Source of the DNA: Pectobacterium parmentieri
Lineage (GTDB): Bacteria; Pseudomonadota; Gammaproteobacteria; Enterobacterales; Enterobacteriaceae
Assembly: GCF_001742145.1 (NCBI RefSeq)
Contig: NZ_CP015749.1
Location: 3,410,001 to 3,474,000 of the forward strand
Direction: 5' to 3'
DNA length: 64,000 nucleotides
Position numbers and translations under genes: made by a program. The notes beneath the pieces are model-generated. The model was not told the origin of the DNA. It worked only from the letters and a program-made list of their open reading frames with translations, and made no database searches. Shown piece after piece: positions 19,829 through 39,456 of the stretch; within the stretch, counting starts at the first letter, position 1; each line of letters starts with the position of its first letter.

Positions 19829-20632
19829 GTGAATAGTTTCAATAACTCAGCACTTCGTCGCGCTTTTACGCCGCTGGCATTTTGTCTATTGGCGTTTAGC
19901 GCTCATGCCCAAACGAGCGACCCACTCCTGGCAATGCCTTCTCATGATAATCAAACCGCTGCGCCCGCAGACAATCAGGCGCGTGGGATCCTCATCGCCG
20001 TCGATCAGGCCACGCTGTCCAGTGATTTGGCTGGGCGTATTGTAGAAATACCGTTTCGAGAAGGGGAATCCTTCAAGAAAGGCGATCTGTTAGTGCGGTT
20101 TGACTGTTCGATTTATCAGGCCCAATTGGCCGCAGCCTCTGCTGCCACGCGAGCTGCAGAAGCGGAACTGAGCCAAAATCAGCAACTGGCACAGATGAAA
20201 TCGGTAGGGAGACACGCGGTATCGTTATCCGCAGCGCACTTTGCACAGGCTCAGGCAGAAAGCCAGGTCTATCAAATCCAGGTCAATCGTTGCCGACTTC
20301 TGGCCCCGTTCGATGGACAAGTAGTAAAACGCCGCTCCCAAACATACGAAAGCGTCGGCATTGGCGCACCGGTTCTGGATATCGTCAATAATCGCCATCT
20401 GGAGATCAACCTGCTGGTGCCATCACGGCTATTGTCGGTACTAAAACCCGGATTAACCTTTACCTTCACTCCCGATGAAACCGGCAAACCGTTACAAGCC
20501 AAAGTCACACGGCTTGGCGCACGTATTGATGAGAGCAGCCAAACCCTTGGCCTGACGGGTACGCTAGCCCACACGGACGATACGTTGATGGCTGGGATGA
20601 GCGGTACAGCACAGTTCTCGGAGGTGCGGTGA
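19829..20632 (+). CDS. HlyD/RND-type periplasmic adaptor protein
   Basis: A 267-residue protein with a Sec signal peptide (FTPLAFCLLAFSAHAQ) followed by a compact adaptor fold. Visible parts are the lipoyl half (DLAGRIVEIPFREGESFKKG), a helical hairpin (residues about 100-150), the second lipoyl half (CRLLAPFDGQVVKRRSQTYE) and a beta-barrel (LVPSRLLSVLKPGLTFTF). It would bridge an inner-membrane partner to a TolC-type channel. The start is GTG with AAGGCAGG upstream. Its stop overlaps the next start (GTGA). It is the first gene of the export operon. Confidence 0.85.
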   Translation: MNSFNNSALRRAFTPLAFCLLAFSAHAQTSDPLLAMPSHDNQTAAPADNQARGILIAVDQATLSSDLAGRIVEIPFREGESFKKGDLLVRFDCSIYQAQLAAASAATRAAEAELSQNQQLAQMKSVGRHAVSLSAAHFAQAQAESQVYQIQVNRCRLLAPFDGQVVKRRSQTYESVGIGAPVLDIVNNRHLEINLLVPSRLLSVLKPGLTFTFTPDETGKPLQAKVTRLGARIDESSQTLGLTGTLAHTDDTLMAGMSGTAQFSEVR

Positions 20633-21957
20633 ATACTCCGGCAACCACTGCCAGTGCCGCCGCTTTTGCCCGCTTCCTTGACGTTGAGCGGCAAGCGCGA
20701 GCAGCAAAAAGTACCGAAGAATTGGCCTATTGCATCGTCAACGACAGCCAGCCGCTGTTCGGTTTTCGCCATGCCGCGTTGATCATCAATGGCCGGGTAC
20801 GCGCAGTCACCGGCGTCACCCAACCCGCGCCCCATGCGCCCTTTGTGGCGTTTATCGAACGTGCCTGCACCCAGTTGTCATCCGCCGATGAGAAAGCATT
20901 GGCCCAATGCACAGTGATTGAAGCCTCACAGCTTGATGAACAAAGCCGTAAAGATTGGCTGGCGCTGTCTGCCCCCGAGGCTCTGTGGTCCCCCCTCAAC
21001 GATCGTCAGGGGAAACCCTTCGGTGCTATTTGGTATGCGCGAGAACAGCCATGGCAAAGTACCGATCAGGTGTTGGCGGAGCAACTCAGCGGTGCTTTTA
21101 GCCACGCCTGGCTGGCACTCGAACCGCAAACGACCCGCTGGCGGCGACGACAGACTCGATGGAAAATCGCCGTACCTGCGCTGCTACTGATCGCTTGTCT
21201 GTTTATTCCGGTGCGTCAGTCTGTATTGGCACCCGCCGAAGTTATTCCTCATCAGGGCCGTGTCGTCGCCGCCCCACTGGACGGTGTGATCCAATCCTTC
21301 ACGGTGTTACCGAACCAGAGTGTACGCCAAGGGGAGGTGTTGGTTCGCTTTGACAGTACAACCCTGAAAGCTCAGGCAGATGTAGCCGAACGAGCATTGA
21401 ATGTCGCCGAAGCGGAGCACCGAGCGAGTTCTCAACGCGCGTTTCAAGATGCGGATTCCAAAGCTCGGCTCGACTTTCTTGCCGCTCAGGTGGCACAAAA
21501 ACGAGCAGAACGCGATTACGCCAATGCTTTGCTGAGCCGCGCAGAAATCCGTGCCGAACGAGATGGTATTGCGGTGTTCGCCGATGCCACGCGCTGGATG
21601 GGTAAGCCAGTACGCACCGGCGAACGTTTGATGGAGTTGGCAGACCCCGCTCTCACCGCATTACGCATTGAGTTGGACGTAGGCGACGCCATCCAGTTGC
21701 AGCAAGAGGCACCCATCACACTGTTTCTGGACAGCGACCCGCTGACACCGCACGCCGCATTGTTAGAACGTATCGCCTATGAGTCGGAACAGACACCAGC
21801 CGGCAATCTGGCCTACCGTCTGGATGCACGCTTCACTGACACACCGCCACGTATCGGCCTGCGCGGCACGGCAAAAATTTCCGGCGACTATGTTCCCCTT
21901 GCCGTTTATCTATTCCGTCGACCGCTGGCAGTGATCCGTCAGGCGATTGGGTTATGA
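20629..21957 (+). CDS. GAF-like domain fused to HlyD-type membrane adaptor
   Basis: A 442-residue protein. Residues 1-170 form a cytoplasmic GAF-like sensor or docking domain (FARFLDVERQARAAKSTEEL, then LFGFRHAALII and PFGAIWYAREQPW). One TM follows at about 183-200 (KIAVPALLLIACLFIPV). The periplasmic part is a HlyD-type adaptor: QGRVVAAPLDGVIQSFTVLP, a coiled-coil hairpin, then SRAEIRAERDGIAVFADATR. It overlaps the preceding gene (GTGA) and the following gene (ATGA), so the three proteins are probably made in fixed proportion. The domain pairing is unusual for type I secretion. The GAF call is from fold-like pattern only. Confidence 0.75.
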   Translation: MNTPATTASAAAFARFLDVERQARAAKSTEELAYCIVNDSQPLFGFRHAALIINGRVRAVTGVTQPAPHAPFVAFIERACTQLSSADEKALAQCTVIEASQLDEQSRKDWLALSAPEALWSPLNDRQGKPFGAIWYAREQPWQSTDQVLAEQLSGAFSHAWLALEPQTTRWRRRQTRWKIAVPALLLIACLFIPVRQSVLAPAEVIPHQGRVVAAPLDGVIQSFTVLPNQSVRQGEVLVRFDSTTLKAQADVAERALNVAEAEHRASSQRAFQDADSKARLDFLAAQVAQKRAERDYANALLSRAEIRAERDGIAVFADATRWMGKPVRTGERLMELADPALTALRIELDVGDAIQLQQEAPITLFLDSDPLTPHAALLERIAYESEQTPAGNLAYRLDARFTDTPPRIGLRGTAKISGDYVPLAVYLFRRPLAVIRQAIGL

Positions 21958-24059
21958 ATCCGCACCTGCCTCCCCTGCGCGCCGATCTTCAATTGGTAGA
22001 ATCGGCTCCGGGCATCAACGGAGCCCCGCAGTGGGTGCTGTCCGATCCGATAACCGGGCGTTATTTTACCCTGACTCCCTCGGCTATCCGCCTGCTGCGT
22101 CATTGGCCATTGCGCCAGCCGCAGCAAATACTGGACGCCGCCAACAAGGAGCCCGGCCTGCCGCTGCGAGTGAAAGAATTGGAGCAACTGCTACAGTTCC
22201 TACGCCAGCACGATCTGGTCGCGGCAAGCGACCCAGAACAACGTCAGCGCTATCTGGGCAAAGCTCAGGCGATGCGCACCAGCTTGTGGAAAAGCGTGCT
22301 GCATCAGTATCTGTTTTTCCGTATTCCTCTGTGGCGACCCGATCCGGTACTCAACCGCTGCTGGCCGTGGCTACAGCGCTATGGTGCGCCCTTTCTGGTC
22401 TGGATCTTTCCATTAATCCTGCTGCTGGGTTTATTTTTAGTCAGTCGAGACTGGGTACGTTACACCCATTCATTTCCACACCTCTTCAGCCTGTCCGGTA
22501 TGGCTGTGTTCGGTGTCTCTCTGGTGTTCGCCAAATTTATCCATGAGCTAGGCCATGCCTTTATGGCGAAACGAGCGGGCTGTCGTGTGCAAAGTATGGG
22601 CGTTGCCTTTATCGTGTTATTTCCCTTGTTTTACACTGACACTACCGACGCCTGGAAACTGAAGGATCGTCAGGCACGTTTGCTGATCGGCGCGGGCGGC
22701 ATTCTGGCCGAACTGATGTTGGCGGTTATTGCGCTATTGGCCTGGACATTACTGCCAGATGGCCCGGCACGAACAGCCGCTTTTATGCTTTCCAGCGCGA
22801 CGTGGCTGACCACATTAGTCGTAAACCTTAATCCTTTGATGCGCTTCGATGGCTACTTTTTACTTAGCGATTTCTGGCGCGTAGAAAATCTGCAAGAACG
22901 TGCCTATGCGCTCTGCCGCTGGCGGTTGCGGGAAAGTCTGTTCGGTCATGGTCACCCAGCGCCGGAAAACCTTTCCCCATCCCTGCAACGCAAGCTGCTG
23001 GTGTGGGGCTATGCCTCCTGGATATGGCGCTTTTTCCTGTTCTTTGGCATCGCGCTGGTGGTTTACCACTTTTTTATCAAGGTGATCGGCATTGGTTTAA
23101 TGCTGGTTGAGATCGTTTGGTTTATCGCGCTACCGATAGCCAAAGAAGCCTATGCCTGGTGGTCCATGCGCAAATCAATACACCCCATCGCTTTTTTACG
23201 CAGCGCCCTGCTGTGCCTGATCCTGTCATTTATTTTGCTTTATCCATGGGGGGGGAGTATCCACATCCCTGCCGTATTGGAAGCGGAAAAGGTCAGTACC
23301 CTCTACAGTCCAGTACCCGCACAGGTTAACCGGCTACACGTAACCGATGGTCAACAGGTGGATGCGGGGGACATTCTGCTGGAACTGACGTCGGTCGATC
23401 TGGATTATCGTCTCGATATTGAACGTCAGCGTATCGCCCAATTACAACAGCAGCGGCAGCGTGGAGCGGCACGGCAGGAAACCGCCAGTGAAATTCAGGT
23501 CATGGATCGGCAGTTAGCTGAAGCGCTAGCACGCTATCGAGGGTTGGCAGCACAGCGTCAACGCTTAACGATTCGGGCACCGCAAACGGGCGTGGTACGC
23601 GATCTGGCACGTGACCTGACAACAGGACGCTGGCTAACGGCAGATACCCCCCTACTACGAGTGGTGGACCCCGCTCAGGGTCGGGTGGTTGGCTATATCC
23701 CCGAGGAATCACTCCGGCGCACTCAAGAGGGCATGCTGGGCGTCTTCCTTGCCGACGATCCCGCTTTCCCACGTCTTGACGTCACGCTTCATGACATCGC
23801 CCCCACAGGCAGCGCTTACCTGCAACAAGAAATGCTCGCGTCCGATCGCCACGGCCCGATTGCCGTGCGACGCGATAACGAACGTAATCCGCAGCCGGTG
23901 CAAGCACAATACCGCGTGCAGTTTACCCTGCCCCCTCAAGCGCCGTTACCACAACAGCCTCTGCGCGGTAGCGTCGTCGTCGCGGGAGAGAAAGAATCAC
24001 TACTGGGAGCCACCTGGCGCCGCGTCGCCGCCTTAGGTATCCGCGAAAGTGGTTTTTGA
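21954..24059 (+). CDS. PqqD-like / M50 zinc metalloprotease / HlyD fusion protein
   Basis: A 701-residue multi-pass membrane protein. The N-terminal 90 residues resemble PqqD-like peptide-binding domains (QWVLSDPITGRYFTLTPSAI). The core is a site-2-protease type M50 domain with the zinc motif HELGH at residues 197-201 and the distal ligand motif NLNPLMRFDGYF with Asp near 299, so the active site looks intact. The C-terminal part is a HlyD-like periplasmic arm (SPVPAQVNRLHVTDGQQVDA, coiled coil, RAPQTGVVRDLARDLTTG). Relatives are annotated as putative peptide zinc metalloproteases near secretion genes. It may process or gate the cargo; that is inference. Confidence 0.85.
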   Translation: MNPHLPPLRADLQLVESAPGINGAPQWVLSDPITGRYFTLTPSAIRLLRHWPLRQPQQILDAANKEPGLPLRVKELEQLLQFLRQHDLVAASDPEQRQRYLGKAQAMRTSLWKSVLHQYLFFRIPLWRPDPVLNRCWPWLQRYGAPFLVWIFPLILLLGLFLVSRDWVRYTHSFPHLFSLSGMAVFGVSLVFAKFIHELGHAFMAKRAGCRVQSMGVAFIVLFPLFYTDTTDAWKLKDRQARLLIGAGGILAELMLAVIALLAWTLLPDGPARTAAFMLSSATWLTTLVVNLNPLMRFDGYFLLSDFWRVENLQERAYALCRWRLRESLFGHGHPAPENLSPSLQRKLLVWGYASWIWRFFLFFGIALVVYHFFIKVIGIGLMLVEIVWFIALPIAKEAYAWWSMRKSIHPIAFLRSALLCLILSFILLYPWGGSIHIPAVLEAEKVSTLYSPVPAQVNRLHVTDGQQVDAGDILLELTSVDLDYRLDIERQRIAQLQQQRQRGAARQETASEIQVMDRQLAEALARYRGLAAQRQRLTIRAPQTGVVRDLARDLTTGRWLTADTPLLRVVDPAQGRVVGYIPEESLRRTQEGMLGVFLADDPAFPRLDVTLHDIAPTGSAYLQQEMLASDRHGPIAVRRDNERNPQPVQAQYRVQFTLPPQAPLPQQPLRGSVVVAGEKESLLGATWRRVAALGIRESGF

Positions 24060-24332
24060 TCGATCTTAGTCCCCCCTGCGGGCAGTACCTCGCCTTTAAG
24101 CCCGCAGCCAACCTATTTCCCCTCATCAGCCTATTTACTGTGAAGCGGTATTTTTCAAAATATTGCTATTTTTTTCTGCCGGTAACCAACAAAAAGTCGC
24201 GCTTAAGCTATGGTTCATAAGTGACTAAAAAACAAGTCAATATGATAACAACAAAATAATAAGACAGCTAATCAACGCGCTCTTTACCCGAGTAAAACCA
24301 ACAAAAAAACAGTCATTCTATCAAGGGGATTC

Positions 24333-25145
24333 ATGATGAAGTTAACTAAACGATTCTATGCCAAGTCTGCCCTTGCGGCATCGTTGGCCGTTATGATGTT
24401 TCATGCAGAAGACGCCTCCGCCTGTGCAGGCGATGAACCCTATATCGGCTCGGTATGTTATATGGTCACCAGTTACTGTCCGAGCGGTTATCTACCTGCT
24501 GCGGGACAATCACTCTCGATCAACACTTATCAGGCACTCTATTCGTTGATCGGCAATTTATGGGGCGGCTCGCAGCAAACCGGCAATTTTACGTTGCCCG
24601 ACCTGCGCGGTAGAAGCCTCGTTGGCTCAGGGCAAGGTACGGGGCTCAGCCTGATAACACGCGGCCAATCGCTGGGTGCCGAAACCGCCACTCTAGCGGC
24701 AAGCAATATCGCACCTCACACCCATCCCACCACGCAATCACTCACCAACACCTTTAATGTGCTAGTGCCTGCCACCACAGGCAATCTCAATGTTACGGCC
24801 GCGCTACCGCTCGCCGCTGCTACGCCCGCTACGGGCGGTGCCACGCCGACGGCAGGTGCAAACTTCCTGACGGCGATCAGTGCCACCGTACCGGTCGGTG
24901 CAGCAACTCAGAATGCCAGCTTTAAAGGGCCGTATCAGGCAGCCAAACCGGGCAGCGGATCGACGTTGCCCGCCGATGTGACCGTGACGGGCGTAGCCAG
25001 CTTACCGTCGTTCACCGTCAAAGTGCCGGAAACCGTGGTGGGTAATAATACCGGGGGGGGAATGCCATTCTCGGTGCGCGATCCCGCGATGGGGTTGACC
25101 GCCTGTATTGCCGTGCAAGGTCTCTACCCAATCAATCCAAACTAG
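24333..25145 (+). CDS. Secreted phage-tail-collar domain protein
   Basis: A 270-residue protein with a signal peptide (KSALAASLAVMMFHAEDASA) and an N-terminal tail-collar domain: EPYIGSVCYMVTSYCPSGYL, then LYSLIGNLWGGSQQTGNFTL and PDLRGRSLVGSGQG. The MdpB-like His motif APHTHPTT follows. The C-terminal half is Ala/Thr/Val-rich with low complexity. Tail-collar proteins outside phages are known as secreted proteins of uncertain function (microcystin-dependent protein family). No phage genes are nearby. It lies inside the export locus but has its own terminator, so it may be a second cargo or an outer-surface accessory. Confidence 0.8.
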   Translation: MMKLTKRFYAKSALAASLAVMMFHAEDASACAGDEPYIGSVCYMVTSYCPSGYLPAAGQSLSINTYQALYSLIGNLWGGSQQTGNFTLPDLRGRSLVGSGQGTGLSLITRGQSLGAETATLAASNIAPHTHPTTQSLTNTFNVLVPATTGNLNVTAALPLAAATPATGGATPTAGANFLTAISATVPVGAATQNASFKGPYQAAKPGSGSTLPADVTVTGVASLPSFTVKVPETVVGNNTGGGMPFSVRDPAMGLTACIAVQGLYPINPN

Positions 25146-25181
25146 TCGGGTTTTGACATTCCGATTTTTGAAATATTAAGC

Positions 25182-25210
25182 GTGCCGGGTATTTTCCCGG
25201 CACTTTCTTT
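25182..25210 (+). terminator. Intrinsic terminator after tail-collar gene
   Basis: A perfect 8-bp stem GTGCCGGG/CCCGGCAC (25182-25189 and 25196-25203) with a 6-base loop, followed by TTTCTTT. It ends the transcript of the preceding four genes and implies a separate promoter for the giant gene in 25211-25501. Confidence 0.85.
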
Positions 25211-25463
25211 ATTCAGTAATTTAGATATTAATATCATTGAGTTAATGATTGAGTATCGTAAGACAATTTCACCATTAGAAATGCGAATCCTATAAACAAA
25301 AAAAATCAATAGAGATTCATCTTACTTTTCGGAAATTTATATTCACAAGTTTTAATATTTCACTTAAATTTACATTAAGACAACAGAACAATCATGTGGC
25401 AATCATTTGCTTTACATTTAGTGCTACATGGCGTTTTTACGTCTCCCTACCACATCGATTAGG

Positions 25464-25480
25464 TTGTTATGTAATAACAA
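25464..25480 (+). promoter_or_regulatory. Palindrome upstream of the giant repeat-protein gene
   Basis: TTGTTAT GTA ATAACAA is a perfect 7-3-7 inverted repeat ending 21 bp before the ATG at 25502, just ahead of the ribosome site (GGGAG). It could be a repressor operator or an mRNA hairpin that affects initiation. No regulator is identified. Confidence 0.4.
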
Positions 25481-25501
25481 TGATTACTGGGAGTACAGGC
25501 T

Positions 25502-28500
25502 ATGCAATGGCGCCATTTCTTATCTTCATGCAGTAAACGCGATCGTACCAGTAGCGACACGGTGACAGATTTATCGACACCGCTAGGGTACGCCCTTGAA
25601 GCACGCATGATGTTTGATGGCGCCGTCGCCGCCACCGTGAATCAAGCCGATGCCGGGCAAACCGCCAGCGATGCGGCACACAACACCGCCTCAGCAACAA
25701 CCAATGACACCCAAAAAGATCAATCCAGTGCTCAAACCGACCACCGCACAGGGCAGGACGCAACGGATACCCAGGATGCAACCAGCGACATCGCGGTTGC
25801 TGGGGATACTGCCCGCAAAGAAGTGGTGTTTATCGATACCTCATTAACCGATTACCAAACGCTGGTCGACAACGTACCTACCGGTATCGAGGTGGTATTG
25901 CTGGATGGCAGCAAAGATGGCCTAAGCCAACTGGCAGAGTGGGCAAAAAACCACAGCGGTTATGATGCAATTCATGTACTTAGCCACGGTGGTGAGGGCG
26001 AACTGCAATTGGGTTCGTTAACGCTGGACAGCAAGACCGCCGACGCACGTGCCGCTGATTTAGCCACGCTGGGCGCAGCGCTGACGGAATCAGGAGATTT
26101 ACTGTTGTACGGCTGTGAAGTCGCGCAAAGCTCCGGGCAGAGCTTCGTTTCTCTGCTGGCACAAATCACGGGGGCCGATATCGCGGCCTCTAACGATACC
26201 ACGGGTCTGGGTGGAGATTGGGATCTTGAAATACAGACTGGGGTGATTGAAGCCGCAGCGCTACAAATAGACAGTTACCAGCATGCCTTGCACGTCAGCA
26301 ACACTGAGGTAACACTGTGGATCGATGGTATAGATTATAGCACCAACCCAGTGGGGCCAGGCAGCGAAGTATTCCTAGATTTAAGGGATGAGGCCAGTTC
26401 CGAATGGTACATTGATATTGACCCGGTCACCTCGACCATCACCATGACCATACGTAACGGTCAAGGGCCGTATGTGGGGCTTGAGTCGTTCGACTTGGTG
26501 TTCAATAACCTCACTAACGGCACATTACTCGCCATCACTTCGATCACCAAGGATAACAGCGTAACCACCAGTGAGGCGAAGCTTTCAGCCAGCGTTATCG
26601 GCACCGACAAAACCATCACCTTCCATGTCGACAACGACGGTACAAAAGGCGATGGGGTTTTAGTGTGGCACTTCACGTCGACCAATCTTGGCGGTAGCAG
26701 TGATACCCTACCAAGCGTCAGCGGTAGCGGCACCAATCCGACCTACACCGAAAACGGCACCGACGTCGGCTTATTTACCAACGTAATCGCTAATACCAAC
26801 GACAATGGACAAACCTTTACCGGTGCCACCTTTACCGTAACCAACGTAACAGACAGCACCGAATACCTGAACATCAATGGCTTCAAGGTATCGCTGATCA
26901 ATGGCAATAGCGTCTCACTCGGCAGCGGCTACGGTTCGGCCAGTGTCTCCCTCAGCGCTGGCACGGCAAGCATCAGCCTAAGCGGAGCGATATTAAGCAA
27001 TGCCGATATGGGCACCTTGCTATCTGGCATGACCTACGGCAACAGCAGCGAGAATCCCCATACCACCGCACGGGTCGTGACCCTGACTCAGGTCACCGAT
27101 TCTGGTGCCAGCAACAACAGCTACAGCCCCGGCAATATCGCCAGCACCGTCACCGTGGTTGCCGTCAACGATGCACCAACGGATTTGGCGCTTTCCAACA
27201 CGACATTCGGCCAGTCTCTGGGCAGCAACGGTATTATCGGGACGTTATCGGCAACCGACGCAGACTCCACCACATTTACCTACAGCCTGGTGAGTGGTGT
27301 CGGCAGTACTGATAATGCGCTATTTACCCTCAGCGGCAGCACGCTGAGAGCGGTTAATGCCGCCACCATGGCAGCCGGAACCTATTCCGTGCGTATCCAG
27401 GTCTCCGACGGGCAAGCGACCTATGAGAAGGTCGTCACCCTAACGGTGGCCGACGATATCGCGCCTACATTTGACGCGACACCGACGATCACCGCACCGA
27501 CAGTGAGCGGTTTTACCCTTAATACTGACCTCAACGAGCGGGGCACCATCTATTATGTTGTGCTCTCCGATGGCGCCAGTGCACCGAGCGTCACTCAGGT
27601 CATTAACGGGCAGAACGCCTCAGGTAGCCTGGCACTCGCTTTCGGCAGTCAGTTAGCCGGCAGCGCGCCCTACAGTCAATCCCTGACCCTGACGGGTTTA
27701 GCCGCCGCCACCGCCTATGATGTGTATGTGGTCGCCAGAGACAGCGCCGGTAATGCCACCGTCAGCGTCGTCAAGCTTGATGTCACGACCGCCGCAAGCA
27801 GCACCGCACCAACCCTGTCCGCCACGGGCAGCAATCCGGTATTTATTGGCGGTATGGCGGGTGCTGTCGATCTGTTCAGCGGCGTCAGCGCCGACACGCG
27901 GGACAGCGGGCAGACCTTTAACGCACTGACTCTGACCGTGTCCAACGTCAGCGACAGCGGTGAATTTATCAGCGTGGCGGGCAACACCATCAGCCTGGCG
28001 AGCAATGGCAGCGGCACACTGACCGGCATCGGCAGTTATACGGTAACGCGCGTCGGCAATACTGTGACGCTACAGTTGAGCGGGATGACCGCCAGCAACA
28101 CGCAATTTGCCGGTCTGGTGGATGGCTTACGCTACGGCAATAGCAACAGCAGCGTTACGGCGGCCACACGGGATGTGTCCTTAACCGCCGTCAGCGATAG
28201 CGGGACCAGTAACAACACCACGTCGCTAAGCCTTACGTCGTCAGTGAATGTATTAGCCAGCAACAGCGCGCTGTATGTTACCTCTGGAGACGATACCGGC
28301 GCTGATGCGTCTTTCGGCAATAGCTTACAAGACGATCTCAATGATGGCGGCGGGCTCAGCCTGCGCGAAGCGTTGCATTGGGCCAACCAGACCCCCGGCA
28401 TCGATCGTATCGTATTTCAGACCGACGTGACGCTGAGCAGCTCCATTTTGTCACCCACCGAGACCCTGCTTATCGACGGTCAGAGTTTCACCCTGAACGG

Positions 28501-31500
28501 TGGCGGTTATTCTGGCTTTCAGATCACCAGTTCGTCGCTGACGTTCGCCATCCAGAACCTAACCCTGACCCATTTCACCACCATCAACAACCTGTACTCG
28601 GGTGGTGTGCTGGGGATCAATGCTGGCGCATTAGATATCAACTTCAGGTTGTACAACGTTGATATTACGGGGAACACCGACGATGGCTGGGGCAATGGCA
28701 TGATTGACCTGAGCCATATTCAACAGGGCGCCTACATCTTCGATCTCGATCAGGTCAATATCCATGATAATACCCAGTTGGGCGGCACGAATGAAGAAGG
28801 CGTGATCAAGTTGTTCGTGTCCGGCACCCAGCAAACCGTCTCGCTGTCACTCACCAATTCAGCCATCTACAACAATAATGGTGCCAATGCGGCCAATGGG
28901 TCGATTGGCGTGGCAGGTCTCTACTTGGCGTCAAACGGCAGCACCAACGCCCCCAACACCCATGTCACCTTGATGAACACCACCATCACCGGTCAGGATG
29001 CCGGTATTGAGTTTCACTTCATCAACCATGCCTCTAGCTGGGCTGCCAGTGTGCGCAACTCGATTATATCGGGCAATACTGTCGATATTGTCATCCATAA
29101 CGACACCACCACTAACGGTTCCTATACCCTAAATGGCGGTAATAACCTGATCGGCAGTAACGTTAATCTCGTGTCATCATCAGATCCTCGTCTGGCTACT
29201 ACAGCCAGCAATGCCATTAATCAGGGTGACCGTTTCTCTGTTACCGGCAATGGTGATGCGCGGGGCCTGGATCGTGTGCGACAAGGGGCTGTCGACATCG
29301 GTGCTTACGAATCACAGTTTACTTCGGGTGTGAGTCCACAAGTGGACCTGAACGGTGCAGGCTCTGGCAGTGACTATAGCGCTACCGTCTCTACCGGTCT
29401 GAGTACAGGCGTGCCTATAACCGATATGCTGGCAACGCTGTCACAAACTGATGGCGATACTCGTCTGTGGACACTGACGCTCGCGCTGTCTGGCAACACC
29501 GATGGCAGTAACGAATATATGACGCTATCGCAGCAGGCTCTGTTGGCAGCTCATGCAGCAGGCATCAACGTCTCCGGGGATGGCAGCCAAACCCTGACTC
29601 TCACTGGCGGCGCTACGTCAGAAGCCTTCCAGACCGCACTACGCGCTATCGTGTATGTCAATGTGGCCACGACCCCTAGCGGCGGTGCACGTACCATTTC
29701 GGTTACCGCCAATGACGATGCCAGCCGCAGCGCGACCTCGACGTTGACGGTGGTCGTTGGCAATCCCCCTGTGGTTGCCGCACCGATCCCCGCACAAAAT
29801 ATCGCCCAGAATGACGGCCTGAGTTTCACCGTACCGGCAGGCACCTTCACCGATCCGGATGTCGGTGATACATTGACCCTCAGCGCCACGCTGGCAGATG
29901 GTTCGCCGCTGCCAGGCTGGATCACCTTTAATCCGGTCACCGGCACCTTCTCCGGTACGCCGGGTAACGCCGATGTCGGTAGCCTGTCTATCCGCGTCAC
30001 CGCTACCGACGGCAGCAACGCCTCGGTATATACGGATTTCAGCCTGACCGTCACCAACGTTAACGACGCGCCGGTGGTGGCGACGCCGATACCGGCACAA
30101 AGCGTGGCACAAGATGACAGCCTGAACTTCACCGTACCGGTAGGTACCTTCACCGATCCGGATGTCGGCGATACCCTGACCCTCAGCGCCACGCTGGCCG
30201 ATGGTTCACCGCTGCCGAACTGGATTACCTTTAATCCGGCCACGGGCGCCTTCTCCGGCACGCCAGGCAATGCAGATGTCGGTACCCTGAGCATTAAGGT
30301 CACCGCCAACGATGGCGATGCGTCCGTCAGCACCACGTTTAGTTTGACGGTCACCAACGTCAACGACGCTCCGGTGGTCGCGACGCCGATACCGGCGCAA
30401 AGTGTGGCACAGGATGGCAGTCTGAGCTTCACCGTACCCGCAGGCACCTTCACGGATCCGGATGGCGATACTCTCTCTCTGAGCGCCACGCTGGCCAACG
30501 GTTCACCGCTGCCAAGCTGGCTCACCTTTAATTCGGCCACCGGCACCTTCTCCGGCACACCGGGCAATGCAGATGTCGGCACCCTAAGCATTAAGGTCAT
30601 CGCCAACGATAGTGGGGCATCGATCAGCACCACCTTTAGCCTAACCGTCACCAACGCCAACGACGCTCCGGTGGTCGCGACGCCGATACCGGCGCAAAGT
30701 GTGGCACAAGATGGCAGTCTGAATTTCATCATTCCCGCGGGTACTTTCACCGATCCGGATGGCGATACCCTGACCCTGAGCGCCACGCTAGCTAACGGCT
30801 CCCCGTTGCCAAGCTGGCTCACCTTTAACACAGCCACTGGCACCTTCTCCGGCACACCGGTTAATGCGGATGTTGGTAGCCTGTCTATCCGCATCACCGC
30901 CACCGATGGCAGCAACGCCTCGGTATATACGGATTTCAGCCTGACCGTCACCAACGTCAACGATGTGCCAGTGGTTGGCACACCGATACCGGCACAGAGT
31001 ATCGCGCAGGATGGTAGCCTGAATTTCACCGTTCCCGCTGGCACGTTTATCGATCCCGATGGCGACACTCTGACCCTGAGCGCCACGCTGGCTAACGGCT
31101 CACCGCTACCGGGCTGGATTACCTTTAATCCGACTACTGGCACCTTCTCCGGCACGCCAGGCAATGGCGATATCGGCAATCTGAGCATTAAGGTCACCGC
31201 CAACGATGGTGATGCCTCGATCAGTACCACCTTCAGTCTGACAGTTACGCCAGCGAACCAGGCTCCCGTAGTATCCACACCAATCCCGCCGCAAAGTGTA
31301 GTGCAGGATGGCGGCTTCAACTTTACCGTGCCTGCGGGCACCTTCAGCGATCCCGATGGCGACACTCTGACCCTGAGTGCCACGCTGGCAGACGGTTCAC
31401 CGCTGCCAAGCTGGATCACCTTTAATCCGGCCACTGGCACCTTCTCCGGTACACCGGGCAACGCCGATGTCGGTAATCTGAGCATCCGCGTCACCGCCAC

Positions 31501-33964
31501 CGACGGCAGTAATACCTCAATTAGCACCAGTTTTGGCCTGACGGTGACCAACGTTAATGATGCGCCAGTGGTTGGCACACCGATACCGGCACAGAGTATC
31601 GCGCAGGATGGTAGCCTGAATTTCACCGTTCCCGCTGGCACGTTTATCGATCCCGATGGCGATACCCTGACACTGAGCGCCACGCTGGCAGACGGTTCAC
31701 CGCTGCCAAGCTGGATCACCTTTAATCCGGCCACTGGCACCTTCTCCGGCACACCGGGCAACGCCGATGTCGGTAATCTGAGCATCCGCGTCACCGCCAC
31801 CGACGGCAGCAGCGCGGCGGCACATACGGATTTCGGCCTGACCGTCACCAACGTCAACGATGTGCCAGTGGTTGGCACACCGATACCGGCACAGAGTATC
31901 GCGCAGGATGGTAGCCTGAATTTCACTGTTCCCGCTGGCACGTTTATCGATCCCGATGGCGACACTCTGACCCTGAGCGCCACGCTGGCAGACGGTTCAC
32001 CGCTGCCAAGCTGGATCACCTTTAATCCGGCCACTGGTACCTTCTCCGGCACGCCGGGCAATGGTGATGTAGGCAACCTGACGATCAAAGTCACCGCCAA
32101 CGACGGTGATGCCTCGGTCAGCACCACCTTTAGCCTGACGGTCACTAACGTTAACGATGCTCCAGTGGTTGGCACCCCAATCCCACCACAAAGCGTGGCG
32201 CAGGATGGTGGCTTTAACTTCACCGTACCGGCAGGCACCTTTACCGATCCGGATGGCGATACCCTGACGCTCAGTGCCACCCTCGCTGACGGGTCACCGC
32301 TGCCGAGCTGGCTGCACTTCGATCCCACCATCGGCACCTTCTCCGGCACGCCGGGCAATGGTGATGTCGGTATGCTGGTGATCCGAGTAACGGCCACCGA
32401 CGGCAGCAATACGTCCATCAGCACCAGCTTTGGTCTGACAGTCACTAACATCAACGATGCCCCAGTGGTTGGCACCCCAATCCCACCACAAAGCGTGGCG
32501 CAGGATGGTGGCTTTAACTTTACCGTACCCGCAGGCACCTTTACCGATCCGGATGGCGATACCCTGACGCTCAGTGCCACCCTTGCCAACGGGTCACCGC
32601 TGCCGAGCTGGCTGCACTTCGATCCCACCATCGGCACCTTCTCCGGCACGCCGGGCAATGGTGATGTCGGTATGCTGGTGATCAGGGTAACGGCCACCGA
32701 CGGCAGCAATACGTCCATCAGCACCAGCTTTGGTCTGACAGTCACTAACGTTAATGAAGCTCCTGTGGTATCCACCCCTATTCCACCGCAAAGCGTGGCG
32801 CAGGATGGTGGCTTTAACTTTACCGTACCCGCAGGCACCTTTACCGATCCGGATGGCGATACCCTGACGCTCAGTGCCACCCTCGCCAACGGGTCACCGC
32901 TGCCGAGTTGGCTGCACTTCGATCCCACCATCGGCACCTTCTCCGGTACGCCGGGCAATGGCGATATCGGTACGTTGGTGATCAGGGTAACGGCCACCGA
33001 CGGCAGCAATACGTCCATCAGCACCAGCTTTGGTCTGACAGTCACTAACGTTAACGATGCGCCAGTGGTGTCCACCCCGATCCCGCCGCAAAGCGTGGCG
33101 CAGGATGGTGGCTTTAACTTTACCGTACCCGCAGGCACCTTTACCGATCCGGATGGCGATACCCTGACGCTCAGTGCCACCCTCGCCAACGGGTCACCGC
33201 TGCCGAGCTGGCTGCGCTTCGATCCCACCATCGGCACCTTCTCCGGTACGCCGGGCAATGGCGATATCGGTACGTTGGTGATCAGAGTAACGGCCACCGA
33301 CGGCAGCAATACGTCCATTAGCACCAGCTTTGGTCTGACGGTGACGCGCAGCATTGTAGGCAGCGATCCGCAGTTCAAAGCCAACGACGGTATTGGCCGG
33401 ACGCCGTCATCAAGCGATGCGCGCCAGTTGTCTACGCAGGATGCCACAACGGCACCGCCGACGTTGAATGGCCTGATTACCAACCCGTCGCTCGGCAGTT
33501 TCACCGTGGGTAACGACGGTGCACCAATGTCAGTGATGTCTGCCATTTTCGCTACCGGACGCCAGAACACAGAGGGAGGCACCATACCGGTCAGCCAGGT
33601 TGCGGGCACTTTCGGACGCGGAGTCGCCAGCGGCATTGGCATTAACTTCGACAGCACCCTAGGCTCCTTCCCCAGCTTTAGTAAAGATCCCGCACTAGGC
33701 GGCACCTCATCGCTGGCTAGCGCATTCTCGGGGATCTATCTGCCTTCACTGATGCCAATGGAGGTCTTCTCCGGCGGTAGTTGGAAGAACATTCCGATCG
33801 ATAGCGCGGGCAGCACAACGAATAGCACCGATGACGGCACTGGGCGTTCCGTGGCATTTATGCCCTCGCTGCATCAGCAATTACAACAGATAGGTGACTC
33901 GGAACTGCAACGTCTGGCAGCCATTGAGCAAGCATTGCAGGAAAGTGGTCAGCAGCAAGGATAA
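25502..33964 (+). CDS. Giant DUF4347 / cadherin-like / putative-Ig repeat exoprotein
   Basis: A 2820-residue protein with no Sec signal. A LEPR-like motif (LEARMMFDGA, residues 32-41) is followed by a DUF4347 domain (about 109-265, FIDTSLTDYQTLV to GGDWDLEIQTG). Two similar beta modules flank a cadherin-like module (about 400-920), then a CSLREA-like beta-helix segment (GGGLSLREALHWANQ, about 945-1280). Twelve tandem putative-Ig (He_PIG type) repeats of 99-100 residues span about 1420-2616, with PIPAQSVAQDGSLNFTVPAG, FTDPDGDTLTLSATL and TFSGTPGNADVG as recurring phrases. The C-terminal 200 residues are non-repetitive and end QESGQQQG. It is probably a large surface adhesin or matrix protein exported by the neighbouring adaptors and TolC homologue. 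I saw no RTX nonapeptides. Confidence 0.85.
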   Translation: MQWRHFLSSCSKRDRTSSDTVTDLSTPLGYALEARMMFDGAVAATVNQADAGQTASDAAHNTASATTNDTQKDQSSAQTDHRTGQDATDTQDATSDIAVAGDTARKEVVFIDTSLTDYQTLVDNVPTGIEVVLLDGSKDGLSQLAEWAKNHSGYDAIHVLSHGGEGELQLGSLTLDSKTADARAADLATLGAALTESGDLLLYGCEVAQSSGQSFVSLLAQITGADIAASNDTTGLGGDWDLEIQTGVIEAAALQIDSYQHALHVSNTEVTLWIDGIDYSTNPVGPGSEVFLDLRDEASSEWYIDIDPVTSTITMTIRNGQGPYVGLESFDLVFNNLTNGTLLAITSITKDNSVTTSEAKLSASVIGTDKTITFHVDNDGTKGDGVLVWHFTSTNLGGSSDTLPSVSGSGTNPTYTENGTDVGLFTNVIANTNDNGQTFTGATFTVTNVTDSTEYLNINGFKVSLINGNSVSLGSGYGSASVSLSAGTASISLSGAILSNADMGTLLSGMTYGNSSENPHTTARVVTLTQVTDSGASNNSYSPGNIASTVTVVAVNDAPTDLALSNTTFGQSLGSNGIIGTLSATDADSTTFTYSLVSGVGSTDNALFTLSGSTLRAVNAATMAAGTYSVRIQVSDGQATYEKVVTLTVADDIAPTFDATPTITAPTVSGFTLNTDLNERGTIYYVVLSDGASAPSVTQVINGQNASGSLALAFGSQLAGSAPYSQSLTLTGLAAATAYDVYVVARDSAGNATVSVVKLDVTTAASSTAPTLSATGSNPVFIGGMAGAVDLFSGVSADTRDSGQTFNALTLTVSNVSDSGEFISVAGNTISLASNGSGTLTGIGSYTVTRVGNTVTLQLSGMTASNTQFAGLVDGLRYGNSNSSVTAATRDVSLTAVSDSGTSNNTTSLSLTSSVNVLASNSALYVTSGDDTGADASFGNSLQDDLNDGGGLSLREALHWANQTPGIDRIVFQTDVTLSSSILSPTETLLIDGQSFTLNGGGYSGFQITSSSLTFAIQNLTLTHFTTINNLYSGGVLGINAGALDINFRLYNVDITGNTDDGWGNGMIDLSHIQQGAYIFDLDQVNIHDNTQLGGTNEEGVIKLFVSGTQQTVSLSLTNSAIYNNNGANAANGSIGVAGLYLASNGSTNAPNTHVTLMNTTITGQDAGIEFHFINHASSWAASVRNSIISGNTVDIVIHNDTTTNGSYTLNGGNNLIGSNVNLVSSSDPRLATTASNAINQGDRFSVTGNGDARGLDRVRQGAVDIGAYESQFTSGVSPQVDLNGAGSGSDYSATVSTGLSTGVPITDMLATLSQTDGDTRLWTLTLALSGNTDGSNEYMTLSQQALLAAHAAGINVSGDGSQTLTLTGGATSEAFQTALRAIVYVNVATTPSGGARTISVTANDDASRSATSTLTVVVGNPPVVAAPIPAQNIAQNDGLSFTVPAGTFTDPDVGDTLTLSATLADGSPLPGWITFNPVTGTFSGTPGNADVGSLSIRVTATDGSNASVYTDFSLTVTNVNDAPVVATPIPAQSVAQDDSLNFTVPVGTFTDPDVGDTLTLSATLADGSPLPNWITFNPATGAFSGTPGNADVGTLSIKVTANDGDASVSTTFSLTVTNVNDAPVVATPIPAQSVAQDGSLSFTVPAGTFTDPDGDTLSLSATLANGSPLPSWLTFNSATGTFSGTPGNADVGTLSIKVIANDSGASISTTFSLTVTNANDAPVVATPIPAQSVAQDGSLNFIIPAGTFTDPDGDTLTLSATLANGSPLPSWLTFNTATGTFSGTPVNADVGSLSIRITATDGSNASVYTDFSLTVTNVNDVPVVGTPIPAQSIAQDGSLNFTVPAGTFIDPDGDTLTLSATLANGSPLPGWITFNPTTGTFSGTPGNGDIGNLSIKVTANDGDASISTTFSLTVTPANQAPVVSTPIPPQSVVQDGGFNFTVPAGTFSDPDGDTLTLSATLADGSPLPSWITFNPATGTFSGTPGNADVGNLSIRVTATDGSNTSISTSFGLTVTNVNDAPVVGTPIPAQSIAQDGSLNFTVPAGTFIDPDGDTLTLSATLADGSPLPSWITFNPATGTFSGTPGNADVGNLSIRVTATDGSSAAAHTDFGLTVTNVNDVPVVGTPIPAQSIAQDGSLNFTVPAGTFIDPDGDTLTLSATLADGSPLPSWITFNPATGTFSGTPGNGDVGNLTIKVTANDGDASVSTTFSLTVTNVNDAPVVGTPIPPQSVAQDGGFNFTVPAGTFTDPDGDTLTLSATLADGSPLPSWLHFDPTIGTFSGTPGNGDVGMLVIRVTATDGSNTSISTSFGLTVTNINDAPVVGTPIPPQSVAQDGGFNFTVPAGTFTDPDGDTLTLSATLANGSPLPSWLHFDPTIGTFSGTPGNGDVGMLVIRVTATDGSNTSISTSFGLTVTNVNEAPVVSTPIPPQSVAQDGGFNFTVPAGTFTDPDGDTLTLSATLANGSPLPSWLHFDPTIGTFSGTPGNGDIGTLVIRVTATDGSNTSISTSFGLTVTNVNDAPVVSTPIPPQSVAQDGGFNFTVPAGTFTDPDGDTLTLSATLANGSPLPSWLRFDPTIGTFSGTPGNGDIGTLVIRVTATDGSNTSISTSFGLTVTRSIVGSDPQFKANDGIGRTPSSSDARQLSTQDATTAPPTLNGLITNPSLGSFTVGNDGAPMSVMSAIFATGRQNTEGGTIPVSQVAGTFGRGVASGIGINFDSTLGSFPSFSKDPALGGTSSLASAFSGIYLPSLMPMEVFSGGSWKNIPIDSAGSTTNSTDDGTGRSVAFMPSLHQQLQQIGDSELQRLAAIEQALQESGQQQG
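29767..33348 (+). repeat. Twelve tandem ~300-bp coding repeats (putative Ig domains)
   Basis: Twelve units begin near 29767, 30067, 30367, 30664, 30961, 31261, 31561, 31861, 32158, 32458, 32758 and 33058. The last four (32158-33348) are almost identical at DNA level, and units 7 and 8 share long identical stretches with unit 5. Early units are more diverged. Such an arrangement expands and contracts by recombination and is prone to assembly collapse. Confidence 0.9.
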
Positions 33965-34066
33965 CCCTGTGCGACAACGCAGCAACTGGCGATACGCAAG
34001 ACGATCGCAAGCACAGCCATCACAAGAATAACATTGGTAATGATGATAATGACGAGGAGCGGAATC

Positions 34067-35575
34067 GTGTTAAAGGGTCGGAAACTATTTAGCCTTAGCG
34101 CCATCGTGCTAGCCGCCAGCGGCTGTGCCGTAACCACCCAGCCGATCAGCAAGGTCGAAAGCGGGCAGCGTAGCCAGCAGGACCGAGTCGCCATGTTCAG
34201 CCAGCAGGAGCCGGTTACGGCACCGATCACGCTGTATGATGCTATGGCGCGTGCACTGAAATACAACCTCGAATCACGCCTAAAGGTGATGGAATATGCG
34301 CTGAGCCAGCAACAGGTGGAGCTGGCACGTTACGATATGCTGCCAAAGCTGGCGGCATCGGCAGGCTACGTGGGGCGTAACAATATGAGCGCCTCCAGTA
34401 GCCGCAGCGTAGAAACGGGACGTACCTCTCTGGAACCGTCAACCTCACAGGATCGCGACCGCGATGTAGCCGATCTGACCATGGTGTGGAACGTGCTCGA
34501 CTTTGGCGTCAGCTACGTTACCGCCCAGCAAAAATCGGATCAGCGCTGGATAGCCGAAGAACGTAAACGTAAGGTGGTGCACACCATCCTGCAAGACGTG
34601 CGCTCCGCCTACTGGCGCGCCGTGGCTGCCGAGCGTCTGCTGGGGCAGATTGACAGCCTGATCGCCCGCGTTAACGCCGCACGCGACGCGAGCGAGCGCA
34701 TGTCATCGCAGCAGATTGGCGATCCGATTGAATCACTAAGCTACCGGCGCGCGCTGATCGACGCCACGCGCCAGTTGGAAGAGCAGCGCCGTGCTCTGTC
34801 TCTAGCCAAGACGGAGTTAGCAACCCTGATGAATCTGCCGCTGGATACGGCCTACAAGCTCGCGTTACCACAGAGCGGCGATGAAGTCGTACCGCAGTTG
34901 AATGTCGATGTGAGGGTACTGGAAGAAACCGCACTGGTCAGCCGCCCGGAATTGCGCGAACAGGATTACCAGGTAAGAATTCATGCCGCTGAAACCCGCA
35001 AGGCGCTGCTGCGCATGCTACCCGGCGTAGAAATTAGCGCAGGCGGCCATTATGACAGCAACTCCTTCCTGGTTAACAACAGTTGGGCTGACGTCGGCGT
35101 GAAAGCGACCTGGAACCTGTTTAACCTGCTGTCCGGCCCAGCCGCACGTAAAGTGGCACAGGCTAACGAATCCGTATCGGAAGTACAGCGTCAGGCGATG
35201 TCGCTGGCGATTATGGCGCAGTTATACATCGCCCGAGCCAACTTCAATGAGGCACAGCGACAGTATAAAACCAGTGCAGAATTGCGCGATCTCGATACCC
35301 AAATCGTCGAACAGCTACGAAACCGCTATAAGGCCAACAGCATCGGCGAATTGCAATTGATTCAAGGTGAGCTAAACGCCCTCAACGCCAGCCTGCGTCA
35401 GGATCTGGCCTATGCAGAACTACGTAATACCTACGGCCAGATATTCTCGACGATCGGACTGGATTTGCTACCGAAATCATTGCCATCCAATAGCCTTGTG
35501 GATATCAGCCAGTCACTGCGTCAATCTGACGCCAACTGGCAGCAGGGCAAAATCAGTACCTTACAATCGTTCTGA
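34067..35575 (+). CDS. TolC-family outer-membrane channel lipoprotein
   Basis: The likely start is GTG at 34067-34069, preceded by GAGGAGCGG, giving 502 residues. The open frame to 34034 adds an unlikely MVMMIMTRS prefix. A lipobox (LAASGCAV) marks it as an OprM/CusC-like lipoprotein. Two TolC-type repeats of long amphipathic helices follow (DAMARALKYNLESRLKVMEY, QRRLSLAK-like helices, YIARANFNEAQRQYKTSAEL). It would be the outer-membrane conduit for the three adaptor proteins encoded upstream. It starts about 100 bp after the giant gene on the same strand, and a strong terminator follows. Confidence 0.88.
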   Translation: MLKGRKLFSLSAIVLAASGCAVTTQPISKVESGQRSQQDRVAMFSQQEPVTAPITLYDAMARALKYNLESRLKVMEYALSQQQVELARYDMLPKLAASAGYVGRNNMSASSSRSVETGRTSLEPSTSQDRDRDVADLTMVWNVLDFGVSYVTAQQKSDQRWIAEERKRKVVHTILQDVRSAYWRAVAAERLLGQIDSLIARVNAARDASERMSSQQIGDPIESLSYRRALIDATRQLEEQRRALSLAKTELATLMNLPLDTAYKLALPQSGDEVVPQLNVDVRVLEETALVSRPELREQDYQVRIHAAETRKALLRMLPGVEISAGGHYDSNSFLVNNSWADVGVKATWNLFNLLSGPAARKVAQANESVSEVQRQAMSLAIMAQLYIARANFNEAQRQYKTSAELRDLDTQIVEQLRNRYKANSIGELQLIQGELNALNASLRQDLAYAELRNTYGQIFSTIGLDLLPKSLPSNSLVDISQSLRQSDANWQQGKISTLQSF

Positions 35576-35655: not shown

Positions 35656-36441
35656 TCAGGCCGTCAGCGTTGCCCCACCATCCACCACCACATCCTGCAT
35701 AGTGATGTGGCTGGCTAGATCGGAAGCCAGAAAAACCACGGTATTGCCGACCTCTTCCGGCTGCCCAATCTTGCTCAGCGGGATCCCCAACTTGTACTGG
35801 TCAGGAAAACCCGCAATAGTGCGCTGTTCCGCATCAGCGCTGTGCCACATACCGCGCTGCATCGGCGTATCCGTCGATCCTGGCGACACCACATTACAGC
35901 GCACGCCGTAAGGTGCCAGTTCCAACCCGGCACAGTGAGACAGGCTAGTGAGCGCCGCTTTCGAAGCACAGTACGCCGCCATTTGCATACGGGGAACATG
36001 CGCGGCATTGGATCCGACGCAGACAATCGCGCCACGGCGCTGCCGCTTAAAATGCGGCACCAGCGCATTCAGCAGGTAAAATGCGCCGGAAGCATTGACG
36101 TTAATACACTGGTGCCAGTCATCCACACTCAGCGTATCAAGATCACCCAGGCGCAAAATGCCAGCGGCGTTGACCAGAACGTCAAGCCCCATTTCAGCCA
36201 GTTGCTGGCGACACACGACTGCCACGCTGTCCGGCTCGCTGATATCCAACGTCACGCAGGAAAATGGGCGATCTTTATACGGGGAGGTCTGATGTCGGAA
36301 TTCACGGTCGAAGCCGATCACGCTCGCGCCTAGCGCGACAAACTGGTGGGCAATACTTTCACCAATGCCGCTCGCCGCACCAGTTACCCAGACGGTTTTC
36401 CCACTGAAATCAAACTGAAGAGGTTGTACCTTATTCATCAT
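35656..36441 (-). CDS. entA: 2,3-dihydro-2,3-dihydroxybenzoate dehydrogenase EntA
   Basis: A short-chain dehydrogenase that makes 2,3-dihydroxybenzoate, the catechol precursor of enterobactin/chrysobactin-type siderophores. The nucleotide motif is VTGAASGIGESIA, the NAAGIL motif is present, and the catalytic triad lies in VGSNAAHVPRMQMAAYCASK (Ser, Tyr, Lys). The C-terminus FLASDLASHITMQDVVVDGG is typical. ATG at 36441 or 36438 is preferred over the GTG at 36453; all lie in or after the entB remnant, whose stop is at 36447. It is the last gene of the entCE(B)A unit. Confidence 0.9.
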   Translation of the reverse strand: MMNKVQPLQFDFSGKTVWVTGAASGIGESIAHQFVALGASVIGFDREFRHQTSPYKDRPFSCVTLDISEPDSVAVVCRQQLAEMGLDVLVNAAGILRLGDLDTLSVDDWHQCINVNASGAFYLLNALVPHFKRQRRGAIVCVGSNAAHVPRMQMAAYCASKAALTSLSHCAGLELAPYGVRCNVVSPGSTDTPMQRGMWHSADAEQRTIAGFPDQYKLGIPLSKIGQPEEVGNTVVFLASDLASHITMQDVVVDGGATLTA

Positions 36442-36446
36442 TTTCC

Positions 36447-36554: not shown

Positions 36555-36580
36555 CACAACATCCTTATCTGTTTTGAATA

Positions 36581-39402: not shown

Positions 39403-39437
39403 AAGGTAACTCCTGAGCTCGCAAGTTAAATACCAAT

Positions 39438-39456
39438 GATTATTAAAATCATTACC
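39438..39456. promoter_or_regulatory. Predicted Fur box at the entC promoter
   Basis: GATTATTAAAATCATTACC matches the 19-bp Fur consensus at 15 of 19 positions. It lies 36 bp upstream of the entC start, where repression would be effective. Fur control of ent genes is established in enterobacteria; this site is a prediction. Confidence 0.6.

What the first reader, a model, noticed from the sequence alone, without database searches (positions are those of the whole stretch)
19829..35575. Export locus with three adaptor proteins and a TolC homologue but no ABC ATPase or RND pump
In order the locus has a HlyD-type adaptor, a GAF-like/HlyD fusion, a PqqD-like/M50/HlyD fusion, a secreted tail-collar protein, a giant Sec-signal-free repeat protein and a TolC-family lipoprotein. 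Classical type I systems need an ABC exporter such as HlyB or LapB. None is present, and the only multi-pass membrane protein is the M50 fusion. This suggests an export route in which an intramembrane-protease-like protein takes the place of the pump, or one that borrows a distant ATPase. The first three genes overlap by 4 bp each, so they form one machine.
Basis: partly seen in the sequence, partly recalled or inferred. Interest (0 to 1): 0.78.

Follow-up and report, generated by a model that had tools for sequence, protein, structure and literature searches.

The report
Pump-less exporter for giant tagged proteins
A soft-rot bacterium carries a gene set that looks like an export channel for one giant surface protein but has no pump of its own; the same set recurs in many bacteria and goes with a short tag at the start of the giant protein, so it may be a little-studied way of secreting very large proteins.

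Summary
Window 19829-35575 encodes a short HlyD adaptor, a GAF-HlyD, an M50-HlyD, a collar protein, a 2820-aa giant and a TolC-type protein, with no ABC exporter or RND pump. It is not a one-off: of 41 related loci that I read, 33 carry all five core parts (M50-HlyD, GAF-HlyD, HlyD, OEP, boxed giant). The giants share an N-terminal box, LE(P/A/Q)RxxFD(G/A)A, and often a C-terminal FxxQL-like motif. Among 398 genomes, 39 of 40 with a LEPR-model hit at E<=0.001 also have M50-HlyD. The M50 active site is intact in all 41. Six module genomes show only MsbA-level ABC scores and no second SecA, so a borrowed type I pump is not required. The idea is partly in print: Kamneva et al. 2015 described a sister locus with a secondary SecA ATPase and proposed M50 as the pore. 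I find that sister type also paired with LEPR giants; the window type lacks the secondary SecA. Best reading: a dedicated ABC-free exporter of LEPR-tagged giants whose motor is not encoded, perhaps housekeeping SecA. Export, tag reading and energy source are inferred.

The parts
19829..20632 (+). Short periplasmic HlyD/RND_mfp-type adaptor (267 aa) with an N-terminal hydrophobic signal
   Evidence: HlyD_3 53.2 bits; TIGR01730 129.9 bits, cut-off 94.9; counterpart found in 38 of 41 loci
20629..21957 (+). GAF-HlyD: N-terminal GAF domain, one helix, periplasmic adaptor (442 aa)
20650..21123 (+). GAF domain (residues 8-165)
   Evidence: model pLDDT about 79-90 here; VIA rows
21954..24059 (+). M50-HlyD fusion (701 aa): PqqD-like N-terminus, site-2-protease membrane domain, adaptor
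   Evidence: 41% identical paralogue in the same genome
21990..22208 (+). PqqD/RRE-like small domain (residues 13-85), tentative
   Evidence: PF05402 14.1 bits, below cut-off; three strands plus three helices in the model
22542..22556 (+). Metalloprotease motif HELGH (residues 197-201); catalytic Asp 299 at 22848-22850
   Evidence: invariant in A1; both His, Glu and Asp kept in 41 of 41 aligned loci
24333..25145 (+). Secreted tail-collar protein (accessory)
   Evidence: Collar 67.1 bits; relatives in 5 of 41 loci
25502..33964 (+). Giant LEPR-type protein (2820 aa): DUF4347 and Ig/cadherin-like repeats, no Sec-type hydrophobic core
   Evidence: Pfam; N-terminus
25595..25624 (+). LEPR box LEARMMFDGA (residues 32-41), proposed address tag
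25823..26281 (+). DUF4347 domain (residues 108-260)
   Evidence: PF14252, 169 bits
33869..33883 (+). C-terminal motif LHQQL (residues 2790-2794)
   Evidence: pattern phi-x-x-Q-L in the last 70 residues of 25 of 35 giants
34034..35575 (+). TolC/OEP-family outer-membrane channel with lipoprotein-like signal (signal read by eye)
   Evidence: OEP 132.2 bits; counterpart in 39 of 41 loci

Best explanation
The locus is a dedicated ABC-free export and surface-display module for its own giant protein. The giant carries an N-terminal LEPR box in place of a Sec signal. The M50-HlyD protein is the inner-membrane platform: its PqqD-like cytoplasmic domain is proposed to hold the LEPR box, and its site-2-protease core to cut the leader near or after it as the chain enters the membrane. 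GAF-HlyD, with a cytoplasmic GAF domain, is proposed to gate the step by ligand. The three adaptors, whose hairpins look similar in length (two from models; the third by eye), would form one mixed ring docked on the TolC-type channel. The motor is not encoded in the locus; since most sister loci have a SecA-like ATPase, the most likely motor here is the housekeeping SecA, working with the M50 membrane domain or with SecYEG. Shown by sequence: gene set, conservation, pairing with LEPR giants, intact protease site, no ABC exporter in the unit, no second SecA in 28 of 36 genomes. Inferred: export, tag recognition, cleavage, ring, motor. My sub-estimates: pairing of module and giant 0.9; export or display 0.8; M50 reads or cuts the LEPR region 0.55; housekeeping SecA as motor 0.4.
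For: All five core parts in 33 of 41 loci. A loose form of the LEPR pattern marks a giant in 36 of 41 loci; the strict form is in 31 of these 36, in 0 of 97,410 other residues of the giants and 0 of 1204 other ORFs. C-terminal motif in 25 of 35 giants, against a mean of 4.6 and maximum of 10 in 500 shuffles. Among 398 genomes, 89 have M50-HlyD, 93 DUF4347, 74 both; LEPR model E<=0.05: 83, 69 with M50-HlyD; E<=0.001: 39 of 40. Within DUF4347 genomes, LEPR occurs in 58 of 74 with and 2 of 19 without M50-HlyD. Protease site kept in 41 of 41. A 10-residue uncharged hydrophobic stretch in the first 60 residues of 5 of 36 giants, against 39 of 40 HlyDs. LEPR variant follows module type: D in 36 of 36 window-type giants, S or N in 6 of 6 sister-type giants whose start was in the stretch. 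Sister type has a SecA-like ORF in 8 of 12 loci.
Against: No experiment shows export of any LEPR giant. The PqqD-like domain is weak by sequence. Eight of 41 loci lack at least one detected part, some at contig ends. Five of 41 have an ABC ORF of 480 aa or more within 19 kb (G140, G246, G251, G379, G227), and 11 have shorter ABC-ATPase ORFs; a loose cluster of ABC ATPases lies within 6 kb of, and once inside, the span in 8 of 41. They stand in different places. 14 of 83 genomes with LEPR hits at E<=0.05 lack M50-HlyD; 2 of 19 DUF4347 genomes without it show weak LEPR hits; 16 of 74 with it show none. Four M50-HlyD genomes had neither DUF4347 nor LEPR hits; three were read, two have boxed giants, one has none found. 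The window giant itself does not score in the LEPR model. Four of 12 sister loci, and their genomes, have no second SecA either. Housekeeping SecA is universal, so its role cannot be tested by presence.
Confidence: 0.55

Rival explanations
1. Self-contained pump-less export: the M50 membrane domain is itself the protein-conducting pore, without any NTPase, driven by the proton gradient or by folding of the Ig-like domains outside.
For: No ATPase recurs inside the unit: 28 ORFs lie inside the module spans and two have Walker-A-like motifs, each in one locus. Six genomes have neither a LapB/PrtD-type ABC exporter nor a second SecA. Zhang et al. 2012 (PMC3482391, passages only) proposed that PrsW membrane proteases form a conduit for extrusion and processing of toxins.
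Against: 8 of 12 sister loci keep a SecA-like ATPase, which suggests that a motor is needed; housekeeping SecA is always present; ABC ATPases of varied kinds lie near 8 of 41 modules.
Confidence: 0.22
2. Two-step route: SecA/SecYEG moves the giant across the inner membrane using the LEPR region as an odd signal, M50 acts only as the leader peptidase, and the adaptors and OEP carry it on from the periplasm.
For: Two of six DUF4347 giants read from genomes without M50-HlyD have Sec-type signals and no LEPR box; A-rich residues follow the box.
Against: 31 of 36 giants have no uncharged hydrophobic 10-mer in the first 60 residues; the box itself holds E, R and D in 36 of 36.
Confidence: 0.22
3. 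A type I ABC exporter elsewhere in the genome powers the module in trans.
For: 25 of 38 module genomes pass the LapB-type (21) or PrtD-type (15) cut-off somewhere; the window genome has two LapB-type hits and one PrtD-type hit. Seven of the other 13 have intermediate scores.
Against: G010, G163, G186, G216, G393 and G463 have at most 318 bits to TIGR03375 and 241 to TIGR01842; the window genome's 600-aa ORF that I take for MsbA scores 307 and 230. G010 and G163 are single-contig genomes. A HlyB model was not run separately.
Confidence: 0.06
4. The module does not export the giant but processes, anchors or releases it, or exports a small molecule.
For: M50 and GAF domains suggest regulated cutting (inference).
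Against: 31 of 36 giants have no Sec-like hydrophobic stretch, and LEPR box and module go together.
Confidence: 0.1

Closest known systems
Secondary SecA_DEAD / type-I-related locus of Kamneva, Poudel and Ward 2015 (PMC4452313; abstract, sections 16, 17 and 18 and passages read; figures and supplements not seen)
   Same: GAF-HlyD, Peptidase_M50/HlyD, HlyD/biotin_lipoyl, sometimes OEP, no ABC transporter; the authors already proposed SecA_DEAD as ATPase and M50 as the pore
   Different: Their locus has a secondary SecA_DEAD protein; the window locus and its genome do not. They call the broader role completely unknown and name no substrate in what I read (a figure legend mentions proteins over 1,000 aa, not seen); here the substrate is proposed to be the LEPR giant.
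Type I secretion systems (HlyB-HlyD-TolC, LapBCE; recalled)
   Same: HlyD-type adaptors, OEP channel, large Sec-signal-free repeat protein with a C-terminal motif
   Different: No ABC exporter; three adaptors, one fused to a site-2 protease; conserved N-terminal box
LEPR-XLL proteins (NCBIfam NF012209)
   Same: N-terminal LEPR motif on giant proteins
   Different: The window giant reads LEARMMFDGA and does not score; the paralogue scores 13.5 bits, cut-off 17
PrsW-dependent toxin export proposed by Zhang et al. 2012 (PMC3482391; passages only)
   Same: A membrane-embedded protease proposed as conduit and processor
   Different: Different protease family; no adaptor or OEP in the passages seen
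RiPP M50 proteases (daptide protease NF041824, YydH/LiaK NF058609)
   Same: NF041824 146.4 bits over residues 25-390 of M50-HlyD
   Different: Below curated cut-off 300; substrate here would be a giant protein, not a peptide

Membership tests
Type I secretion system | Linked ABC exporter | tested here: not met
   None in the locus or paralogue
Type I secretion system | HlyD-type adaptor and OEP channel | tested here: met
Type I secretion system | Uncleaved C-terminal secretion signal on the substrate | tested here: inconclusive
   Conserved C-terminal motif in 25 of 35 giants; function unknown
Kamneva 2015 SecA_DEAD locus | GAF-HlyD, M50-HlyD and HlyD proteins encoded together | tested here: met
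Kamneva 2015 SecA_DEAD locus | Secondary SecA_DEAD protein in the locus or genome | tested here: not met
   Window genome: one SecA (430.5 bits) and a 32.5-bit fragment match; no SecA-like ORF in 41 window-type loci
LEPR-XLL domain (NF012209) | Score over cut-off 17 bits | tested here: not met
   Window genome has no match at E<=0.05; paralogue 13.5 bits
Peptidase family M50 (site-2 protease) | HExxH, distal Asp and membrane fold | tested here: met
Tripartite RND efflux pump | Linked RND pump | tested here: not met
   No such ORF in the locus
Daptide/RiPP M50 protease | Score over curated cut-off | tested here: not met
   146.4 against 300 bits
PqqD/RRE leader-binding domain | Pfam PqqD over cut-off | tested here: not met
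   14.1 against 23.4 bits; fold of this part not searched alone

The most novel reading that the evidence does not exclude
A distinct secretion pathway: the LEPR box is the address tag of some of the largest bacterial proteins, read and processed by an RRE-M50-HlyD platform and passed through a three-adaptor ring to a TolC-type channel. It exists in a form with a SecA-like motor and in a form, seen in the window, that runs with no dedicated NTPase at all.
Probability: 0.35. Interest if true: 0.9.

Novelty: new variant of a known kind. Interest (0 to 1): 0.72.

Why it matters
If true, a widespread route for proteins from about 1,300 to over 10,000 residues lacks the ABC pump that defines type I secretion, and a named sequence signature (LEPR) for which I found no function in print becomes a targeting signal. 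It gives the 2015 prediction a candidate substrate and so a direct test: tag plus module.

Tried and rejected
Considered and dropped: (1) an ABC exporter in trans as a general need. (2) DUF4347 as the mark of the pathway: 19 of 93 DUF4347 genomes lack M50-HlyD; I read loci of 6 of those 19 and found 0 LEPR boxes. (3) My first reading of the sister loci as a tandem pair of M50-HlyDs: the smaller partner has no HExxH in 12 of 12 and matches the GAF-HlyD profile over most of its length in 12 of 12, in two pieces in G151; Pfam GAF passes in 4 of the 5 partners scanned. (4) A conserved ATPase or regulator beside the module: nine clusters recur in 4 to 9 of 41 loci, all in the flanks but for the collar protein and one ABC ORF in G216. 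(5) The D. solani hlyD phage-resistance paper (PMC10169776, passages) names prtE, so I did not link it. (6) Asaia secretome (PMC12502724, passages), tripartite-pump review (PMC8277102, passages) and a Burkholderia proteome naming a DUF4347 protein (PMC12322963, passage): no bearing found. Literature searches for the module or tag: (badly chosen terms). I saw listings only, apart from the papers named here; of these only PMC4452313 describes such a locus. No preprints are held. The GAF-HlyD model is poor outside the GAF domain (mean pLDDT 64). The fold search barely tested M50-HlyD before residue 178.

Limits of counts: the 41 loci were chosen by me for long contigs from the hits, not at random; two further fetched loci (G079, G151) were set aside as the distant type. 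Loci were found by the M50 protein, so its 41 of 41 is by selection. The 36 giants were picked by a loose form of the N-terminal pattern, so E, R and D are partly by selection; the pattern also allowed A, K and S there, and the Ala after D-G/A was free. Of the 35 giants in the C-terminal count, G227, G376 and G379 run off the stretch and the G327 frame runs into an HlyD-like end. Fisher tests treat related genomes as independent. Two searches scored only 2-3 candidates per genome, so paralogues are undercounted.
Full report

A SECOND COPY. The same genome holds a paralogous locus (M50-HlyD 41% identical): a 3176-aa giant, OEP, HlyD, GAF-HlyD and M50-HlyD in one row, beside genes that look like Tad-pilus pseudopilins by my reading. 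No ABC exporter shows in the 40 kb read. Its giant is quite different in repeats (beta-propeller-like and Ig) but starts with the same kind of box, VLEPRMMFDAA.

CONSERVATION. M50-HlyD at E<=1e-40 is found in 13 of 197 genomes of the order (single-sequence query), 57 of 369 of the class and 89 of 398 of the phylum (profile query). I read 41 window-type neighbourhoods from 36 genomes: GAF-HlyD in 40, OEP in 39, short HlyD in 38, boxed giant in 36, all five in 33. In G328, counted as a miss, an OEP, an HlyD and a boxed giant lie at the end of another contig. Gene order varies (giant first, between, or after). ABC ORFs of 480 aa or more lie within 19 kb in 5 of 41 loci and shorter ABC-ATPase ORFs in 11, in no constant place.

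THE TAG. Aligned on the box, the 36 giants have E, R, D and the Ala two places after D in all 36, and L in 35 (partly by selection, see limits). A strict form of the pattern occurs near the N-terminus of 31 of 36, nowhere else in 97,410 residues of these proteins and in none of 1204 other ORFs. The last 70 residues carry phi-x-x-Q-L in 25 of 35, against a mean of 4.6 in shuffles and 1.2 in internal stretches. Only 5 of 36 giants have a Sec-like hydrophobic stretch, against 39 of 40 short HlyDs and 35 of 39 OEPs.

CO-OCCURRENCE. In the same 398 genomes, DUF4347 occurs in 93, with M50-HlyD in 74 of those; LEPR-model hits (E<=0.05) in 83, with M50-HlyD in 69; at E<=0.001, 39 of 40. Among DUF4347 genomes the LEPR hit occurs in 58 of 74 with and 2 of 19 without M50-HlyD. 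Six DUF4347 giants read in genomes without M50-HlyD have no box: two begin with a Sec-type signal; of the other four, three begin within or almost directly at DUF4347-like sequence and one (G364) after a short tail. Four M50-HlyD genomes had neither hit; of these I read G249, G344 and G463. In G344 and G463 a boxed giant is present that the models missed; in G249 none was found.

THE SISTER TYPE. The more distant M50-HlyD hits (12 loci read, two of them in 20-kb stretches) pair with a longer GAF-HlyD partner and, in 11 of 12, a short HlyD. Where the start of the giant was in the stretch, it is a LEPR giant of the S/N form (6 of 6; 36 of 36 window-type giants have D). Eight of the 12 have a SecA-like ORF in the locus with SecA_DEAD, preprotein-binding and P-loop domains; the scaffold/wing family PF07516 (recalled as part of normal SecA, not checked) is not among the hits. 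The other four genomes have no second SecA_DEAD match over 29 bits, so the ATPase is not universal even here. This looks like the locus of Kamneva et al. 2015 (PMC4452313; abstract, sections 16-18 and passages read), who noted the lack of an ABC transporter, suggested SecA_DEAD as ATPase and M50 as pore, and called the broader role completely unknown. That it is the same locus rests on gene content, not on their sequences.

THE MOTOR QUESTION. In the window type no SecA-like ORF lies in any of 41 loci. Of 36 window-type genomes, 28 have just the housekeeping SecA besides matches of at most 33 bits; 8 have a further SecA_DEAD protein of 229 bits or more. For ABC exporters in trans, 25 of 38 genomes pass the LapB- or PrtD-type cut-off; of the other 13, seven have intermediate scores and six (G010, G163, G186, G216, G393, G463) only what I take for MsbA-level scores. 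These six also lack a second SecA. So neither such a pump nor a dedicated SecA is required. What remains is housekeeping SecA, another unrecognised ATPase, or no NTPase.

MECHANISM. Shown: composition, conservation, pairing with boxed giants, an intact protease site in all 41. Inferred: that the giant is the cargo, that the box is read by the PqqD-like domain and cut by M50, that GAF gates the step, that three adaptors share one ring, and that SecA drives it. The PqqD call is weak, supported only by the model's topology and by similarity of residues 25-390 to a RiPP leader-protease model below its cut-off.

VERDICT. Real, conserved and unusual, but the basic idea has a published precedent. New here, as far as my searches show (open-licence PubMed Central only): the cargo tag, its two forms that follow the two module types, the C-terminal motif, and a form without a SecA partner.

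Noticed in passing
window 8993-16759 (-): C-P lyase genes (PhnJ, PhnI and two ABC ATPases) sit next to a phosphoenolpyruvate phosphomutase and a thiamine-pyrophosphate enzyme that may be a phosphonopyruvate decarboxylase, so phosphonate breakdown and synthesis genes appear side by side.
   Followed up: partly
window 17464-19545 (+): A 693-aa DUF4034 protein directly upstream of the module; matched only once, in the window itself, among the 43 neighbourhoods scanned.
   Followed up: partly
window 29551-33705 (-): A 1384-aa antisense ORF runs across the repeat part of the giant gene, probably a by-product of the repeats and codon use.
   Followed up: no
relatives, (e.g. G253:C115:112865): LEPR hits lie in open frames of up to 19,427 residues, far longer than the window giant.
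   Followed up: no
L019:16291-19999 (-): The paralogous module of the same genome is flanked by what look like Tad-pilus pseudopilin genes; one flanking family recurs in 4 of 41 loci.
   Followed up: partly
L175, L182, L184, L188, L190, L192, L194, L051: Eight SecA-like proteins of 651-726 aa in sister loci show no PF07516 scaffold/wing hit.
   Followed up: partly
window 35656-42261: Dihydroxybenzoate (catechol siderophore) genes and a TonB-dependent receptor follow the module.
   Followed up: no
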